Source of the DNA: an uncultured Myxococcales bacterium
GTDB lineage: Bacteria > Myxococcota_A > UBA9042 > DTJE01
DNA: 64,000 bases
Reading direction: 5' to 3'
Assembly (NCBI GenBank): GCA_903857665.1
Contig: CAIOFV010000105.1
Location: 248,001-312,000, forward strand
This document shows positions 12,613 to 21,726 of the stretch, piece by piece. Every line of letters starts with the position of its first letter. The first letter of the stretch is position 1. Below the pieces are notes generated by a model, which made no database searches, had not been told where the DNA came from, and saw only the letters and a program-made list of their open reading frames with translations. A program made the translations under genes and the position numbers.

Positions 12613-13845
12613 TCAGTCCGACGGACGCGCGGCGGCCAGCGCGCGGACCACCGACACGCCGTTCTCGGGCCAGCCCGCGGGCGGGGACTGGAGGCGGCCC
12701 GGCGCACAGACGCGGCAGGGGCGGAAGGCCTGGAAGCGGTCGAGGGCCGCGGCGAGGCGGCGTCGATCGCCGGCGACCGCGAGGCCCTGGAGGCGACTCG
12801 CCAGCGTCGGAAGGAGCGAGGCGAGGTCCGGATCGCCGCGAAACGGCACGACCTGGAGCACGCGGCAGCCGGGGGCGCGACGGGCCGGGAGGTCGGGGAG
12901 GAAGGCCACCACCGGGGGCACGGGGCCCGAGGCCGGCAGCACCAGGCCACCCGAGGCGCGGGCCAGCAGGCGGGACTCCTCCAGGAACATCCGGACGGCC
13001 GCGGCGTCGAGGATCGGGATCGGGCCGGGCGGCAACGTGCGCGCCGTTTCGACGAAGGCCTCGTGGAGGAGGTGGGCGAAGGCGCGCGCGGGCACGGGGG
13101 CGCCGTCCTCGACCAGTGCGACCTGCGGCGACAGGCATCCGGACTGGTCGTAGATCGACGCGTCGCGGGCGATGGCCCGGGCCAGGCGCTTTGCGCTGGC
13201 GGTCGAACCCAGCGCGTCGCCGAAGAGGATCGCGATGGATTCGCGGTGGCCGCCGACCAGGGTGAGGCGGCCGGGGCGGGCGGCCTGGACCGCGGCCACG
13301 GTGGCGTCGGATCCGTACGCGAGGACGGCCGGCGCGGCGGCCACGGCATCGACCAGGCGCGGATCGCCCGGGGGCGCGTCCAGCAGGGTGACCGCCGGCG
13401 CGAGGAACGGGGCGGTGCGGGCGACGAGGTCGCACAGCAGCCGCGCGAAGGCCGGCTCGGCGGACGAGGGCTTGAGGACCACCGTGTGGCGGGCGGCGAG
13501 GCCCTGGAACAGGGCACCCGAGGCGACGGCCGGGACGCGGCCCGCGAGGATGGCCAGCAGCCCCCAGTTGCCGGGGAGCGGTGCGTCGAGATTCCCGGGG
13601 GATGCGCGCGCGGCCGAGGCGGTTCGCCGGGCCAGGGACACGAGGCGCCGGCAGGCGGCGAGCGTGTACGGGGCGAAGGCGCGACGCACGGCCTCGTCCA
13701 GGTGCCGGCCGGACCATCCGGTGGACCCGGCGAGTGCGGCCCGATCGGACGGCGTCGGCCAGTCCGGGGCCAAGCCCGCTGCGGCCAGCGCGGCCATCGT
13801 CGCGGCCAGCGCGTCGTCGTCCAGGGTCGGGAAGCCAGGATTCAT
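12613..13845 (-). CDS. LuxC-like acyl-CoA/acyl-protein reductase
   Basis: Aldehyde-dehydrogenase-like fold; active-site context ASIYDQSGCLSPQ typical of LuxC-family reductases; start MNPGFPTLDDD. Confidence 0.82.
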   Translation of the reverse strand: MNPGFPTLDDDALAATMAALAAAGLAPDWPTPSDRAALAGSTGWSGRHLDEAVRRAFAPYTLAACRRLVSLARRTASAARASPGNLDAPLPGNWGLLAILAGRVPAVASGALFQGLAARHTVVLKPSSAEPAFARLLCDLVARTAPFLAPAVTLLDAPPGDPRLVDAVAAAPAVLAYGSDATVAAVQAARPGRLTLVGGHRESIAILFGDALGSTASAKRLARAIARDASIYDQSGCLSPQVALVEDGAPVPARAFAHLLHEAFVETARTLPPGPIPILDAAAVRMFLEESRLLARASGGLVLPASGPVPPVVAFLPDLPARRAPGCRVLQVVPFRGDPDLASLLPTLASRLQGLAVAGDRRRLAAALDRFQAFRPCRVCAPGRLQSPPAGWPENGVSVVRALAAARPSD

Positions 13846-13884
13846 GGACGTCGGGTTTCTCCGTGCACGGCCGGGTCGTTCAGT

Positions 13885-13915
13885 GCGCCCGAGGCGACTC
13901 CGCCTTCGCCTGGAG
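13885..13915 (-). repeat. Dispersed hairpin repeat family B, copy 1
   Basis: Minus strand AGGCGAAGGCGGAGTCGCCTCGGGC; stem AGGCGA/TCGCCT. Confidence 0.6.
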
Positions 13916-13960
13916 TTTCCTGCCGGAAACCCGTCGGCTTCGTCCATGTGCTCGGGCGGG

Positions 13961-15007
13961 CTACAGGGTCCGGGTCGATGCTTCCGTCGAGCACCCCCGG
14001 GCGACCGCCCCCGGGGCCCGGACGATGTCCGTGAAGCCGTCCTGGACGCGCAGCGCCGTGTCGCCGGTCAGCACCGCCACCGCCGTGTACACGTTGGCCA
14101 GGTCGTAGTGGCACAGGATGCCCCGGTCCCCGTCCGGCACCTCGTCCATCGTGGCCGGGTCCAGCACCCGGGTCCGCATCCAGGGCACCGGCACCAGCCG
14201 TCGCGGGCCTGGCGTGACGCGCGGGGCGTCATAGGCCTGCGACAGCAGTTCGGTCATCCCGTACTCCTCGATCACGAGGTCCGGCGGGACGCCCAGCAGG
14301 GCCTGGAATTCTTCCCGAAGGGCCTCCCGGGTGATCGAGCGGCCGGTGGCCTTGTCCCCGCCGGTGTGCATCACCCGGCTCCCGGCCGGCAGCGCCAGCG
14401 AGGCGCCCCGGGCGCGCATGCCGTCGAACAGCGTCAGGCAGTCCAGCGAGGTGCCCAGCACGCACAGGGGCTCGCCGGTCCCGGCCGCCGCCTCGAAGGC
14501 CTGCATCGCCACGCCCAGGTCCACCGCGTCGCCGGTCCGGGCGCACACCGCCGGCCCCCGCCCGAGGGCCTCCACGACGTCGTCCACCATCCGGGACAGC
14601 GAGGACTGGGGCCGATCGGACCCCGGCGGGATCAGGTGGACGAATCGCATCGGCGCCCCGTCGGGCAGCACGAAGCGCCGGCAGCCGGCTACGCCCGACA
14701 GGCGGTACAGGCCCAGGTCCCGGACCAGGTGACGGCCCGGCATGCCCGTGGTGGTGCCCGAGGTCAAGAACGTCGCCTGGGCCTCCGAGGGCGGGAAGTG
14801 GGCCAGCGTCATCAGCTTGAAGCCGGTTTCGGGGACCGGCCGGATCGCCGCGAGGCCCCGGGCCGGGTCGTCGTCCAGCGCGTCCTGGGCCGCCGCGATT
14901 TCGAGGCACAGGGAATCGAAGTCGCCGGGGTCGTCGCCCTGGACGCAGGACTGGATGAAGTCCCGGACGGCGGCGACGAGGGCGGGGTCGATGGGATTCG
15001 TGTTCAT
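13961..15007 (-). CDS. LuxE-like acyl-protein synthetase
   Basis: FLTSGTTTGMPGRHLVRDLGLYR...VIEEYGMTELLSQAYD; LuxE-family motifs; ATGA overlap with the aminotransferase. Confidence 0.83.
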   Translation of the reverse strand: MNTNPIDPALVAAVRDFIQSCVQGDDPGDFDSLCLEIAAAQDALDDDPARGLAAIRPVPETGFKLMTLAHFPPSEAQATFLTSGTTTGMPGRHLVRDLGLYRLSGVAGCRRFVLPDGAPMRFVHLIPPGSDRPQSSLSRMVDDVVEALGRGPAVCARTGDAVDLGVAMQAFEAAAGTGEPLCVLGTSLDCLTLFDGMRARGASLALPAGSRVMHTGGDKATGRSITREALREEFQALLGVPPDLVIEEYGMTELLSQAYDAPRVTPGPRRLVPVPWMRTRVLDPATMDEVPDGDRGILCHYDLANVYTAVAVLTGDTALRVQDGFTDIVRAPGAVARGCSTEASTRTL

Positions 15008-16326
15008 GGGGTTGCCGCTTCCTCGGTCAGGGCGCGTTCGACCAGGCCCAGCGCCTGTTCCAGGTCCCGGGGCGGGATCGACAGGGGCGGCGTGAACGCC
15101 AGCACGTCGCCGGCCAGGCCTTCCGTCAGCAGGATCACTCCGTCCTTCAGCGCGCGCGCCACCACGCGGCCTGCCAGGGGACCGCCGGGACCGCCGCCCG
15201 GGGCCTGCAGTTCCACGCCGATCATCGCGCCGACGCCGCGGACGTCGCGGACGCAGCCGGTGGCTTCGCGCCAGGCCTCGGCCCGCGCCCGCACCACGGC
15301 CTCGATCCGGCCCGCCTTCTGGAGCATGCGCCCGCGGTCCAGGGCCTTCAGCACGCCCAGGCCCGCGGCGCACCCCAGCGGATGGCCCAGGAACGTGGAC
15401 GTGTGGACCGCCTCGACGCCGGCCCGGGACACCGCGTCGGCCAACCGGGGGCGCATCCAGCAGCCCGACAGCGGCACGCCGCCGCCGAGGGACTTGCCCA
15501 GGCACACGGCGTCCGGGACCACGGATTCGGCCTCGCACCGCAGGAAGGTGCCGGTGCGGCCGACGCCGGTATAGACCTCGTCGAACACCAGCACCAGGCC
15601 CTCGGCGGCGCACAGGGCCGCCAGGTTCGCGAGGAAGCCGGGCGGCGGCATCCGGACCCCGCCCCGGCCCTGGATCGGCTCGATGATGACCGTGCCCACG
15701 GGGAAAGGACCGTCGGCGCGTGCGGCAATACGCACCGCGTCCAGCACGGCCGGGGCGTCGGACCCGTCGGCCGCCGGCCAGGGCACGAAGCGTCCGCGAC
15801 CGGACAGCATCGCCGCGAACGGCCGGCGGAAGGCAGGCAGGTGCGTGACCTCCAGCGCGCCCGCCGACAGGCCGTGGTAGGACCCCTCGAAGGCCACGAC
15901 GCCGGCGCGACCCGTGGCCGCCGCCGCGAACTTGAGCGCCGTTTCGACCGCGTCGGCCCCGTTCAGGGACAGCACGGCGCGGTAGTCTTCGGCCGGCAGG
16001 CGCCGGGCGATCTCGCGCAGGAAGCGGGCCTTCACGTCGGCCGGGTGGACGTCCCCCATCGCGTGGAGGAGTCGGCCGGACTGGGTGCGCAGCGCGTCGA
16101 AGACCGCCGGGTGCCTGTGGCCCACGGTGGCGACGCCGAAGAAGGACGTCAGGTCGATGTACCGGTTCCCGTCGGCGTCCCGGGCCCGGGCGCCGTCGGC
16201 CTTGCACAGGGCCACCGGGAAGTCCGACCCGTGATCCAGCACCTCGGGGGCCTCGCGGATTGCGAGGGATCGGAGCAGGGACCGGGAGTGCCGGCGGCCG
16301 GCCTGCTGGCCGAGGGCTCGGGACAT
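15004..16326 (-). CDS. Class III PLP-dependent aminotransferase
   Basis: ...ALSLNGADAVETALKFA...VVAFEGSYHGLSAGALEVTH...LVLVFDEVYTGVGRTGTFLRCE...AVCLGKSLGGGVPLSG. Confidence 0.93.
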   Translation of the reverse strand: MSRALGQQAGRRHSRSLLRSLAIREAPEVLDHGSDFPVALCKADGARARDADGNRYIDLTSFFGVATVGHRHPAVFDALRTQSGRLLHAMGDVHPADVKARFLREIARRLPAEDYRAVLSLNGADAVETALKFAAAATGRAGVVAFEGSYHGLSAGALEVTHLPAFRRPFAAMLSGRGRFVPWPAADGSDAPAVLDAVRIAARADGPFPVGTVIIEPIQGRGGVRMPPPGFLANLAALCAAEGLVLVFDEVYTGVGRTGTFLRCEAESVVPDAVCLGKSLGGGVPLSGCWMRPRLADAVSRAGVEAVHTSTFLGHPLGCAAGLGVLKALDRGRMLQKAGRIEAVVRARAEAWREATGCVRDVRGVGAMIGVELQAPGGGPGGPLAGRVVARALKDGVILLTEGLAGDVLAFTPPLSIPPRDLEQALGLVERALTEEAATP

Positions 16327-18009: not shown

Positions 18010-19347
18010 TCACCGCCCCGGGTCGGGGAAGGTCCGTTCCCAGGCGGGGGTGAAGTAGTCGCCGTCGTCCTGGAACACGGCGCGGGCGTGGGAGCCGTCG
18101 CGATCCATCACCCAGAGGCCCTTGCGTCCCCTGCGCGGCGCGGAGGTGTAGGCGATGCGCCGGCCGTCGGGGGACCAGGAGGGTTCCTCGTCGTTGGTGC
18201 GGCCCGAGGTCAACGGCCGGGCGTCGCCGGTCCGGACGTCCACGGCCCAGATCGCGAACCGGTCGCCTTCGCCGCGGCTCTGGTAGGCGATCAGGGCGCC
18301 GTCCGGGGACCAGTCCGGGCTGGTGTTGTACTCGCCCGGCAGCGGCAGGGGACGGGGCTCGGACCCGTCGGCGTTCATCACCCACACCTGGGGCTGGCCG
18401 CTGCGGTCAGACACGAAGGCGATGTGCCGGCCGTCCGGGGACCACGCCGGGCTGGTGTCGATGTTGCGGCCGGAGGTGAGGCGGGAGAGTTCGGCGCCGG
18501 TCCGGGAGTCCAGCAGGTAGACGTCCGGGTTGCCTTCCGGGGCCAGCGTCACGGCCGCCATCCGGCCGTCAGGGGAGAACGCGATGCCGGTGTTCATCCC
18601 GGGTCGCGCTGAAAAGGACGCACCCTCCACGTACACGTCGGGGTTGCCAGCCTTGTACCCGGTCCAGGCGATCCGTCCGCCCGGCGCCCAGGCGGGCAGC
18701 ATCGCGCCTTCGCGGTCGTCGCTGACCACGGACTGCAGCGAGGACCCGAACTCCGCGACCCAGATCTGCTTGGGCTGGCCGGTCGCCAGCCGCCGGGCGT
18801 ACGTGATGCGGCTTCCATAGGCGCCGGGGACCGTGGTCACGCAGCGCAGGAGGTGGTTGACCCAGGCGTGGATGACGGCGGGAGCGCGGGCGGCGGGCAC
18901 CTCGGCCTCCGCCCTTGGCAGCAGCAGGCGATCCCCCTCCTCGACCATCCAGGCGGCGAGGCGGAGGCGAACCCCGGCCGGCGACGGGCCGACCTCGGCG
19001 GTCACGACCATCCAGGCCCCGGCCTCGCCCCACCCGATGTAGTCGAAGGCCTCGTCGGAAAGCCAGAAGAGGGCGCCCGTGGACGGCGCGGCGGTCGGGG
19101 GCAGCCGCCGGAAGGCTCCCGACAGGTCCAGGTCGTTCGCGAGGGTCGTCCGCACCATGTCGGCCAGCGGGCGCAGCGATCCGTCGTCGGACAGGTCGTA
19201 CACGATCGGGCCTGCGACGGGCGGAGGGGGCGGGGGCTTCAGGGGGTCCCAGCCGAAGGCGAGGCAGCGCGGGTCCGCAGCGAAGGTGATGGCCGGCGGG
19301 GCACCTCCGGCCGGGGCCGCGGCCGTCGTCTGGGCGACGACGGGCAA
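18010..19347 (-). CDS. tolB: TolB-like beta-propeller protein
   Basis: Repeated SPDGRxIAF/WSPDG blades; adjacent to tolA/R/Q. An in-frame hydrophobic stretch (LLCLLASLP) lies upstream, so the true start is probably upstream of 19347. Confidence 0.85.
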   Translation of the reverse strand: MPVVAQTTAAAPAGGAPPAITFAADPRCLAFGWDPLKPPPPPPVAGPIVYDLSDDGSLRPLADMVRTTLANDLDLSGAFRRLPPTAAPSTGALFWLSDEAFDYIGWGEAGAWMVVTAEVGPSPAGVRLRLAAWMVEEGDRLLLPRAEAEVPAARAPAVIHAWVNHLLRCVTTVPGAYGSRITYARRLATGQPKQIWVAEFGSSLQSVVSDDREGAMLPAWAPGGRIAWTGYKAGNPDVYVEGASFSARPGMNTGIAFSPDGRMAAVTLAPEGNPDVYLLDSRTGAELSRLTSGRNIDTSPAWSPDGRHIAFVSDRSGQPQVWVMNADGSEPRPLPLPGEYNTSPDWSPDGALIAYQSRGEGDRFAIWAVDVRTGDARPLTSGRTNDEEPSWSPDGRRIAYTSAPRRGRKGLWVMDRDGSHARAVFQDDGDYFTPAWERTFPDPGR

Positions 19348-19414
19348 CGACGCCAGCAGGCACAGCAGAGCCGGGAGGGTGCAGGGGGCCGGTGGCAGTC
19401 GAGTCCTCAGGGCG

Positions 19415-20308
19415 TCACCGCTTGAAGAGTGCGCCGTCGAGGTCGATGACCATGCCGCGGCGATTGATGTAATCCAGCGTCGGGCCGTCCGGGGCGGGCA
19501 GGTAGACCATGCCGCCGTCCTCGGGGGCGAAGCGCTTCACGGCCGCCAGGGCCGCGCTGGTGAACCGCGAATCGGTCGCGGATTCCACCACCTCGAACGC
19601 CAGGATCTGCCCGGCCGCGCTCAGCTTCGTGACCTTCACGCGCACCCGCAGCCGCATCAGCGCATCCTCGGACAGGAACGGCGGGATCGTGAACTGCTCG
19701 CGGATCGCCAGGGCGACCTTGCCGGCATAGAGGTTGCCGGCCTGGGTCGCAGTCCCGCTGCCCCAGACGCTGCCGTCCGCCGACCCGACGATCTTGTCCA
19801 GCGACGTGGCCCGCTTGCGGGGGTCGTCGTCGTCGGGCGCGCCCAGGATGGCCGCCAGCGACCCGGGCTTGCGCTTGTCGCGTTCCGCGGCCTTCTTCTT
19901 CACGTCCATCCGAGCGGTTTCGCGGTCCTGGACGGGGTCCTTCGACAGGTTCACCGCCTCCTCGATCCGCTCGGCCTGCTCGTACTTGGTCAGCTTCGGC
20001 AGGCCTTTCTGGTCGGCCGCGAGGCCCAACTGGGGGATGACGGACGCCTCGATGATGCCCAGGTCCGCGGCGGACGGCGAGTCCGGGCCCCGGCGGTCGG
20101 AACGCACCACCTGGGAGGGGCAGCGGAACCCGTCGCACAGGCGCTTCTGCAGCAGGCGCTCGGCGACGTCGTCCTCGGACGACCCGCCGGCCGTCGCGAG
20201 CATCACCGCCAGGCCCACGTGGACCAGCAGCGCGATCGCGGCCCCGAAAGCCACCTCCCGCCTGCCGAGCCCGGTTGGGCCCCCGGTCGCTGGTGCTGCG
20301 CCTTCCAC
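19415..20308 (-). CDS. TolA/TonB-like energy-transducing protein
   Basis: N-terminal TM AFGAAIALLVHVGLAVMLA, TonB-like C-terminus (VKVTKLSAAGQILAFEVVESATDSRFTSAALAAVKRFA). Confidence 0.8.
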   Translation of the reverse strand: MEGAAPATGGPTGLGRREVAFGAAIALLVHVGLAVMLATAGGSSEDDVAERLLQKRLCDGFRCPSQVVRSDRRGPDSPSAADLGIIEASVIPQLGLAADQKGLPKLTKYEQAERIEEAVNLSKDPVQDRETARMDVKKKAAERDKRKPGSLAAILGAPDDDDPRKRATSLDKIVGSADGSVWGSGTATQAGNLYAGKVALAIREQFTIPPFLSEDALMRLRVRVKVTKLSAAGQILAFEVVESATDSRFTSAALAAVKRFAPEDGGMVYLPAPDGPTLDYINRRGMVIDLDGALFKR

Positions 20309-20311
20309 CGA

Positions 20312-20875
20312 TCAGCCCTCCGGATCGGCCACCAGCCCGAACTTGCCCACGCCGGACGCCCGCACCTTCGCCATCACCTTCAGGGCCAGGCCGTAGGGGA
20401 TGCTCTCGTCCGCGCGCAGGTACATCTCGCCGTCCCGCTTCAGCTTTTCGTTCGCCGCCAGCCTGGTCACCAGCGCGTCCAGGCACGGCTTGAACAGCCG
20501 GTCCTCGTCGCGGCTCCAGGGCCGGCGACGGGCACCCACGATGCCCTTCAGGTCCGGCGCGATCGGCAGGCAGTCGACCACCAGCGTGTCGCCGACGAAG
20601 AACTGCAGATCGGCGGTGATGCTCAGCACCAGCTTCTTCTCCTGGGCCAGGTTCACGGGCTCGGCGTCGGTGCGCGGCAGGTTCACCGGCACCTTCTGAT
20701 CGATGCGCTCGACCTTCTCGGCCTGCTTCTGCTGCGCCTTTTCCTGCTGCATCTGGGCCGTTTCGATCGACGACGAGATCATGAAGATGATCAGCAGCAC
20801 GAGCATCACGTCCACGAGGGGCGTGACGTTGATCTCGGCCAGCATGCCCTTGTGGCCCGGGTCGCCCATTCCCAT
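20312..20875 (-). CDS. tolR: ExbD/TolR-family biopolymer transport protein
   Basis: MLAEINVTPLVDVMLVLLIIFMIS... with a periplasmic insertion. Confidence 0.92.
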   Translation of the reverse strand: MGMGDPGHKGMLAEINVTPLVDVMLVLLIIFMISSSIETAQMQQEKAQQKQAEKVERIDQKVPVNLPRTDAEPVNLAQEKKLVLSITADLQFFVGDTLVVDCLPIAPDLKGIVGARRRPWSRDEDRLFKPCLDALVTRLAANEKLKRDGEMYLRADESIPYGLALKVMAKVRASGVGKFGLVADPEG

Positions 20876-20902
20876 GGCGGTCCCTCCTGGTCCCCGGCGA
20901 TT

Positions 20903-21613
20903 TCAGTCGCGGAGGAAGTGGCGGCGCAGGATGTTCAGGAAGTCGATGGAAAAGTTTTCCATTTCGACCACGAACACCCGGATCTTGCTGGTGAAGTAGT
21001 TGTACGCCATCACGGCCGGGATGGCCGCCAGCAGGCCCATCGCCGTGGCCACGAGGGCCTGGGCGATGTGTGGCGTCACCGTTTCCAGGATCGGCTTGTC
21101 GGGGGTGATGAAGGCGAAGGCGTTCATGATGCCCCAGACGGTCCCGAACAGCCCGATGAACGGCGCGGCCGACCCGGTCGTGGCCAGGAACGGGACCAGC
21201 TGCTCCAGGCGTGTCTGCTCGTCCTGCTGGGTCCGGCGCAGCGTGCGCTCGATGTTCGCGAAGCCGTGGCCGCCTGCGCCCTGGCCCATGCCCAGCGAGG
21301 CGGCGGCGGCCTGGGGATCGCCCTGCACGCGGTTCAGTTCCGCGAACGCGGCCCGGTAGACCTTCGCGACGGGCGCGTCGGGCAGGCGGTCGGCCGCGGA
21401 GGCCGCCTCTTCCAACGTGCCGCACTTCCAGAAGGTTTCCAGGAACTCGGTCGTCTGGCGCCGCACCCGCCGGAACGCCAGCCCCTTCAGGCCGATGATG
21501 AACCAGCAGCCGATCGACATGCCGATGAGGACCAGCAGCACCATCAGGACCATGCCCCTGGAGGCGATGACCTGCTCGAACACGTTGATTCCGAAAGAAT
21601 CGGTCGGGGGCAT
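20903..21613 (-). CDS. tolQ: ExbB/TolQ-family proton channel
   Basis: TTGSAAPFIGLFGTVWGIMNAF...ALVATAMGLLAAIPAVMAYNYF. Confidence 0.93.
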   Translation of the reverse strand: MPPTDSFGINVFEQVIASRGMVLMVLLVLIGMSIGCWFIIGLKGLAFRRVRRQTTEFLETFWKCGTLEEAASAADRLPDAPVAKVYRAAFAELNRVQGDPQAAAASLGMGQGAGGHGFANIERTLRRTQQDEQTRLEQLVPFLATTGSAAPFIGLFGTVWGIMNAFAFITPDKPILETVTPHIAQALVATAMGLLAAIPAVMAYNYFTSKIRVFVVEMENFSIDFLNILRRHFLRD

Positions 21614-21726
21614 CGTTGCTTCCTCCGGGCGTCTGACCGGCGCGTAGGATACCACCGGCGGGTGCGCTTGGCCTCGTTCCCGACCGCCGCGGAGTACAAT
21701 GCTGCGGTCCGCGGGTAGAGGGGACG

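What the first reader, a model, noticed from the sequence alone, without database searches (positions are those of the whole stretch)
12613..16326. Aminotransferase-LuxE-LuxC cluster without luciferase: possible acid-to-aldehyde-to-amine pathway
Seen directly: a class III aminotransferase, LuxE-like synthetase (4-bp stop/start overlap) and LuxC-like reductase in order on one strand. There are no luxA/luxB genes nearby, and luxD is not apparent. Established: LuxE activates a carboxylate and passes the acyl group to LuxC, which reduces it to an aldehyde; class III transaminases convert aldehydes to amines. Inference: reductive amination of an acyl substrate to a fatty or specialised amine, or installation of an amino end on a membrane or surface molecule. 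The adjacent DUF2723 gene is compatible with envelope decoration.
Basis: partly seen in the sequence, partly recalled or inferred. Interest (0 to 1): 0.72.

Follow-up and report, generated by a model that had tools for sequence, protein, structure and literature searches.

The report
Ancient carboxylic-acid-to-amine enzyme cassette
Three enzymes that together should turn a carboxylic acid (probably a fatty acid) into an amine form a previously unreported set that is shared by most Myxococcota and recurs as a co-inherited trio in a subset of Gemmatimonadota, where nobody seems to have described such a pathway.

Summary
On the minus strand lie a class III aminotransferase (AT, 16326-15004), a LuxE-like acyl-protein synthetase (15007-13961, 4-bp ATGA overlap) and a LuxC-like reductase (13845-12613). 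No luciferase-family gene exists in the held assembly. The cassette is no local accident. In the window's phylum (Myxococcota by relatives' titles) LuxE and this AT type co-occur in 277 of 377 genomes and are both absent from 72 (20 LuxE only, 8 AT only). In 37 of 40 fetched loci they are adjacent, while other neighbours change. In Gemmatimonadota 34 of 35 LuxE-bearing genomes carry the AT and 0 of 86 others do, although AT is there unlinked to luxE-luxC. The ATs form one supported clade outside GabT, PuuE, ArgD, PatA, BioA and HemL, with an unusual active-site signature: GabT Glu211 becomes Arg, Arg398 is lost. LuxE keeps the C-terminal acyl-cysteine, LuxC its catalytic cysteine. Best explanation: acid to acyl-LuxE to aldehyde to primary amine. 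A fatty substrate is inferred (AT beside fabI or near fabH in some lineages). The DUF2723 neighbour is not conserved. Substrate, product fate and activity are untested.

The parts
15004..16326 (-). class III aminotransferase (AT), 440 aa; distinct clade of PF00202
15493..15495 (-). AT catalytic Lys278 codon (PLP Schiff-base lysine, GabT K268 equivalent)
15664..15666 (-). AT Arg221 codon in EPIQGRGG, at the place of GabT Glu211
15097..15099 (-). AT Ala410 codon at the place of GabT Arg398 (amino-donor carboxylate-binding Arg lost)
13961..15007 (-). LuxE-like acyl-protein synthetase, 348 aa (PF04443)
15004..15007 (-). ATGA stop/start overlap of AT and luxE
13991..13993 (-). LuxE Cys339 codon (RGCS), likely acyl-carrying cysteine; aligns with KGCS of Photobacterium LuxE through a Pantoea homologue
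12613..13845 (-). LuxC-like acyl reductase, 410 aa (PF05893); upstream alternative ATG at 13947
13135..13137 (-). LuxC Cys237 codon (YDQSGCLSPQ), likely catalytic cysteine

Best explanation
The three genes encode a reductive-amination cassette. (1) LuxE adenylates a free carboxylic acid with ATP and takes the acyl group onto its C-terminal cysteine (Cys339). (2) LuxC takes the acyl group onto Cys237 and reduces it with NAD(P)H to an aldehyde. (3) The PLP aminotransferase turns the aldehyde into a primary amine, with an amino acid as donor. The most likely acid is a medium or long fatty acid, so the product would be a fatty (alkyl) amine or an aminated lipid precursor. Shown here: gene identity, conserved catalytic residues, conserved order, co-occurrence of the parts in two phyla even when unlinked, and a distinct AT clade. 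Inferred: each enzymatic step (from LuxE, LuxC and class III AT biochemistry), the direction, the fatty substrate and the amine product.
For: Families and residues. Order conserved: AT next to luxE in 37 of 40 fetched phylum loci, luxC beside luxE in 33; of the 7 without it 3 lie near contig ends. Co-occurrence in 377 phylum genomes: both 277, neither 72, LuxE only 20, AT only 8; Fisher odds ratio 125. LuxC in 217 of the 277 and in 4 of 72 double negatives. Second phylum: 34 of 35 LuxE genomes have the strong AT, 0 of 86 others, though AT lies elsewhere in the genome, e.g. 240 kb away in G449; luxE-luxC stay together in 7 of 8. AT clade of 48 rows, SH-aLRT 100. Fatty link: fabI (NCBIfam equivalog, above cut-off) directly upstream of AT in three Gemmatimonadota genomes and fabH close to AT in family f19. 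Precedent: TamA plus TamH turn fatty acids into amines in vitro (PMC9594044).
Against: No experiment. Fisher values ignore shared ancestry, so they overstate independence. LuxE (26.8 of 550 bits) and LuxC (no NCBIfam hit) are far from the long-chain equivalogs, so the acid may not be a fatty acid. The fab links are few lineages each. LuxC was not seen at E 1e-8 in 60 of 277 genomes, including most of family f3; either the profile is too narrow or another reductase serves there. Loss of the usual donor-binding Arg398 leaves the amino donor open.
Confidence: 0.7

Rival explanations
1. Same acid-to-amine chemistry, but on a small polar acid (for example an amino acid or amino-acid side-chain carboxylate, as in the aminoadipate route to lysine), giving a diamine, polyamine or amino acid.
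For: AT scores against GABA-T, LysJ and acetylornithine models; LuxE and LuxC are distant from long-chain equivalogs.
Against: GabT Arg141, which binds a substrate carboxylate (family knowledge), is Leu, Met or Val in all cassette ATs; fabI and fabH neighbours in other lineages.
Confidence: 0.18
2. Catabolic direction: the AT deaminates an amine to an aldehyde and LuxC oxidises it to an acyl-thioester.
For: Class III ATs and LuxC-type dehydrogenase folds are reversible in principle (family knowledge).
Against: A retained LuxE with its acyl cysteine makes sense in the ATP-spending, reductive direction; no transporter or catabolic genes are conserved beside the cassette.
Confidence: 0.06
3. The AT does not act on the LuxC aldehyde; the genes belong to one lipid programme but act on different molecules (LuxE-LuxC make an aldehyde for an alcohol, ether or other lipid).
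For: LuxE-LuxC pairs occur without this AT elsewhere: with an SDR gene in Pantoea, in flagellin glycan islands (PMC7874193, PMC4875605); 20 phylum genomes have LuxE without the AT.
Against: Near-perfect AT and LuxE co-occurrence, adjacency, and start/stop overlap in the window.
Confidence: 0.14
4. Envelope or surface-polymer decoration with the DUF2723 (TMEM260-like) gene as partner.
For: Adjacent in the window and in L042.
Against: Absent beside the cassette in L041 of the same genus and in the other fetched loci.
Confidence: 0.03

Closest known systems
PtTamA + PtTamH (tambjamine YP1 pathway, Pseudoalteromonas tunicata; PMC9594044)
   Same: Fatty acid activated by ATP to a thioester, reduced to an aldehyde, aminated by a class III transaminase; shown in vitro.
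   Different: Uses an adenylation-ACP fusion and a transaminase-thioester reductase fusion (AAR-like reductase), in a natural-product cluster. Here three separate proteins, LuxE with its own acyl cysteine and LuxC, not in a natural-product cluster, phylum-wide.
PigE (prodigiosin MAP biosynthesis)
   Same: Class III aminotransferase coupled to thioester reduction; window AT scores 209 bits on the PigE model.
   Different: Far below the PigE cut-off (850); PigE is a fusion; different reductase.
LuxC-LuxE of bacterial bioluminescence (PDB 7xc6)
   Same: LuxE acylates itself on a C-terminal cysteine and passes the acyl group to LuxC, which makes an aldehyde; homology by profile.
   Different: No luciferase family gene in the genome; aldehyde presumably goes to an aminotransferase; LuxE and LuxC far below the equivalog cut-offs.
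LuxE-LuxC in flagellin glycosylation islands of Aeromonas and Enterobacteriaceae (PMC7874193, PMC4875605)
   Same: Non-luminous use of luxE and luxC.
   Different: Accompanied by ACP, fab and sugar genes; no conserved trio with a class III aminotransferase is described there.
GabT / PuuE 4-aminobutyrate aminotransferases
   Same: Same fold class, PLP lysine, nearest solved structures by sequence.
   Different: Glu211 to Arg, Arg398 to Ala, Ser, Thr, Gln, Glu, Val or Gly, Arg141 to Leu, Met or Val in cassette ATs; separate clade.

Membership tests
LuxE acyl-protein synthetase family (PF04443) | Pfam gathering score | tested here: met
   50.1 against 24.9 bits
LuxE acyl-protein synthetase family (PF04443) | acyl-accepting cysteine near the C-terminus | tested here: met
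   Cys339 in RGCS; a GC motif in all 44 aligned homologues (RGCS, RGCA, RGCG, KGCS or KGCG); Pantoea member aligns KGCS with KGCS of Photobacterium LuxE 7xc6_E
LuxE long-chain-fatty-acid--protein ligase (NF052244 equivalog) | equivalog cut-off | tested here: not met
   26.8 against 550 bits
LuxC family (PF05893) | Pfam gathering score and catalytic cysteine | tested here: met
   85.7 against 21 bits; Cys237 in YDQSGCLSPQ conserved
LuxC long-chain acyl reductase (NF052251 equivalog) | equivalog cut-off | tested here: not met
   no hit for the window protein; homologue in L071 18.1 against 750 bits
lux bioluminescence system | luciferase genes luxA/luxB | tested here: not met
   no PF00296 match in the held genome
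class III aminotransferases (PF00202) | family score and PLP lysine | tested here: met
   274.8 against 30.5 bits; Lys278
GabT, ArgD, HemL, BioA, PatA aminotransferases | clade membership and, for GabT, ArgD and PatA, the Glu211/Arg398 pair | tested here: not met
   separate clade with SH-aLRT 100; Arg at 211, no Arg at 398; below all NCBIfam cut-offs shown
TamA/TamH-type fatty acid to amine cascades | fused transaminase-thioester reductase and adenylation-ACP proteins | tested here: not met
   three separate genes with other reductase and ligase families
TamA/TamH-type fatty acid to amine cascades | conversion of fatty acid to amine | not testable with these tools
   needs biochemistry

The most novel reading that the evidence does not exclude
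Most Myxococcota and a subset of Gemmatimonadota share an undescribed core pathway that makes fatty amines (or an amine-bearing membrane lipid) through a discrete LuxE-LuxC-aminotransferase relay, with an aminotransferase subfamily whose donor-binding salt bridge is broken or charge-swapped (Glu211 to Arg everywhere, Arg398 to Glu in many Gemmatimonadota).
Probability: 0.45. Interest if true: 0.8.

Novelty: new variant of a known kind. Interest (0 to 1): 0.64.

Why it matters
LuxE and LuxC are read almost everywhere as light-making genes. Here they sit in a conserved, probably core, non-luminous pathway of a whole phylum, tied to an aminotransferase whose active site departs from all references examined. 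If the product is a fatty amine, these bacteria would hold an unknown class of cationic lipid, and the three enzymes would be a compact, separable biocatalyst for turning acids into primary amines. The prediction is directly testable in vitro and by lipid mass spectrometry of cultured carriers.

Tried and rejected
DUF2723/envelope link: not conserved. Homospermidine-lipid and plasmalogen clusters of Myxococcus as known homes of the cassette: papers read give no LuxE-LuxC-AT link. Conserved extra partners: none found phylum-wide; neighbours such as SUF, FolK, CysH or MoxR genes are lineage-specific. The phylum of G378 (titled Zixibacteriota) as a third carrier: 1 of 99 genomes has LuxE and the ATs checked there have the ordinary Glu211/Arg398 pair, so the first hit is probably transfer or mis-binning. 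Phage and plasmid homologues of the AT: plasmid hits under 38% identity; two of three checked have the ordinary Glu211/Arg398 pair. AlphaFold model of the AT from 7 sequences: mean pLDDT 62, too poor for active-site claims or a fold search, not used. Literature searches found no description of the trio. An N-acyl fatty amine reported from Corallococcus (PMC10609524) is not tied to any gene and was not used.

Full report
What is there. The minus strand carries AT (16326-15004), luxE-like (15007-13961, ATGA overlap) and luxC-like (13845-12613) genes. Pfam places them in PF00202, PF04443 and PF05893, each above its cut-off. NCBIfam gives the AT no named function: its best score is 269.5 bits against a cut-off of 574, and LuxE reaches 26.8 of 550. 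The held genome is 5.04 Mb in 173 contigs, with one LuxC-like gene, one LuxE match, six class III aminotransferases and no luciferase-family gene.

Is it a unit? Six genome contigs relatives carry all three genes in the same order at 53-87% (AT), 53-84% (LuxE) and 39-78% (LuxC) identity; in L003 a small toxin-antitoxin-like pair lies between luxE and luxC. Across 377 genomes of the phylum a LuxE-profile match occurs in 297 and the AT profile (E below 1e-80) in 285; 277 have both, 72 neither, 20 LuxE only, 8 AT only. LuxC (E below 1e-8, a narrow profile) is in 217 of the 277 and in 4 of the 72. Of 40 loci fetched, 37 have AT next to luxE and 33 have luxC beside luxE. The other neighbours vary by family. 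These counts are not corrected for shared ancestry, and the fetched loci were chosen from LuxE hits, best scores first for the first batch.

Independent support comes from a second phylum. In 121 genomes of the phylum of G380 (Gemmatimonadota by record title) LuxE occurs in 35 and the strong AT (E below 1e-99) in 34, all of them among the 35. There the AT is not next to luxE: in G449 they are about 240 kb apart, in G438 over 600 kb whichever way round, while luxC stays beside luxE in 7 of 8 loci. Co-occurrence without linkage argues for a shared pathway and not for mere hitch-hiking. The 35th LuxE genome, G432, and 24 genomes without LuxE have only weaker AT hits; the four of these that could be aligned (G432 included) have the ordinary GabT-like Glu/Arg pair.

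The aminotransferase is a separate subfamily. A tree of 60 rows puts all 48 cassette ATs from both phyla in one clade (SH-aLRT 100), away from E. coli GabT, PuuE, ArgD, PatA, BioA and HemL and from five paralogues of the own genome (quick method, some long branches among the references). Against GabT numbering the PLP lysine 268 is kept, Arg141 is Leu, Met or Val, Glu211 is Arg in every cassette AT with that region, and Arg398 is never Arg: mostly Ala, Ser, Thr, Gln or Gly in the window's phylum and often Glu in Gemmatimonadota. In GabT-type enzymes Arg398 binds the donor's carboxylate and pairs with Glu211 (established knowledge of the family), so here the pair is broken or charge-swapped. 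Aminotransferases without a LuxE partner that were checked keep Glu211 and Arg398.

LuxE and LuxC look active. LuxE keeps a cysteine near its end in RGCS; a GC motif stands there in all 44 homologues aligned, and through a Pantoea homologue it aligns with KGCS of Photobacterium LuxE in the LuxC-LuxE structure 7xc6. LuxC keeps the cysteine of the motif YDQxGCLSP, with small variants, wherever it aligned over that region.

Mechanism. From the biochemistry of these families the chain is acid to acyl-LuxE to aldehyde to amine. The same net chemistry is shown for TamA and TamH, which make amines from fatty acids with L-Glu as donor (PMC9594044). A fatty substrate is favoured here by fabI directly upstream of AT in three Gemmatimonadota genomes and a fabH close to AT in family f19, and by loss of the carboxylate-binding Arg141. 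It is not proven, and the distance from the long-chain LuxE and LuxC equivalogs leaves room for another acid.

What was not supported. The DUF2723 gene is beside the cassette only in the window and L042, so envelope decoration has no comparative support. The use of the amine is unknown; no conserved further partner gene was found.

Known or new. No paper in the searched library describes the trio; that library lacks most subscription journals. The chemistry is known; the enzyme combination, the AT subfamily and the phylum-wide spread appear not to be, hence 'new variant of a known kind'.

Noticed in passing
window 18010-21655 (-): TolB-like protein followed upstream by TolA-like, ExbD-like and TolQ/ExbB-like genes: a Tol-Pal type cluster upstream of the cassette; TolA and TolB also lie near the cassette in L005 with other genes between.
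   Followed up: partly
L005:4906-6648: A NodU/CmcH-like carbamoyltransferase gene (156 bits on NF041651, below cut-off) sits directly upstream of AT in one relative of the same family.
   Followed up: partly
L003:10137-10786: Two small ORFs that look like a Phd/ParE-type antitoxin-toxin pair lie between luxE and luxC in one same-genus relative.
   Followed up: no
L091:7986-11378 (Pantoea plasmid pSOD02): A luxE-luxC pair followed by an SDR oxidoreductase gene, no aminotransferase: a possible acid-to-alcohol version of the module.
   Followed up: no
L152, L153, L155 around luxE: In several Gemmatimonadota luxE is preceded by an Amidohydro_3 gene and followed after luxC by an ABC transporter pair; meaning unknown.
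   Followed up: partly
L073, L059, L069 and most of family f3: AT and luxE (or luxE alone) without a recognisable luxC beside them; whether another reductase serves there is open.
   Followed up: partly
L002:4274-5398: The LuxE of the nearest relative carries a 27-residue insert near its N-terminus, absent from the other members aligned.
   Followed up: no
L182:3001-4254 (Haladaptatus plasmid): An archaeal class III aminotransferase with Asp at GabT 211 and Glu at 398, another departure from the usual Glu/Arg pair.
   Followed up: no
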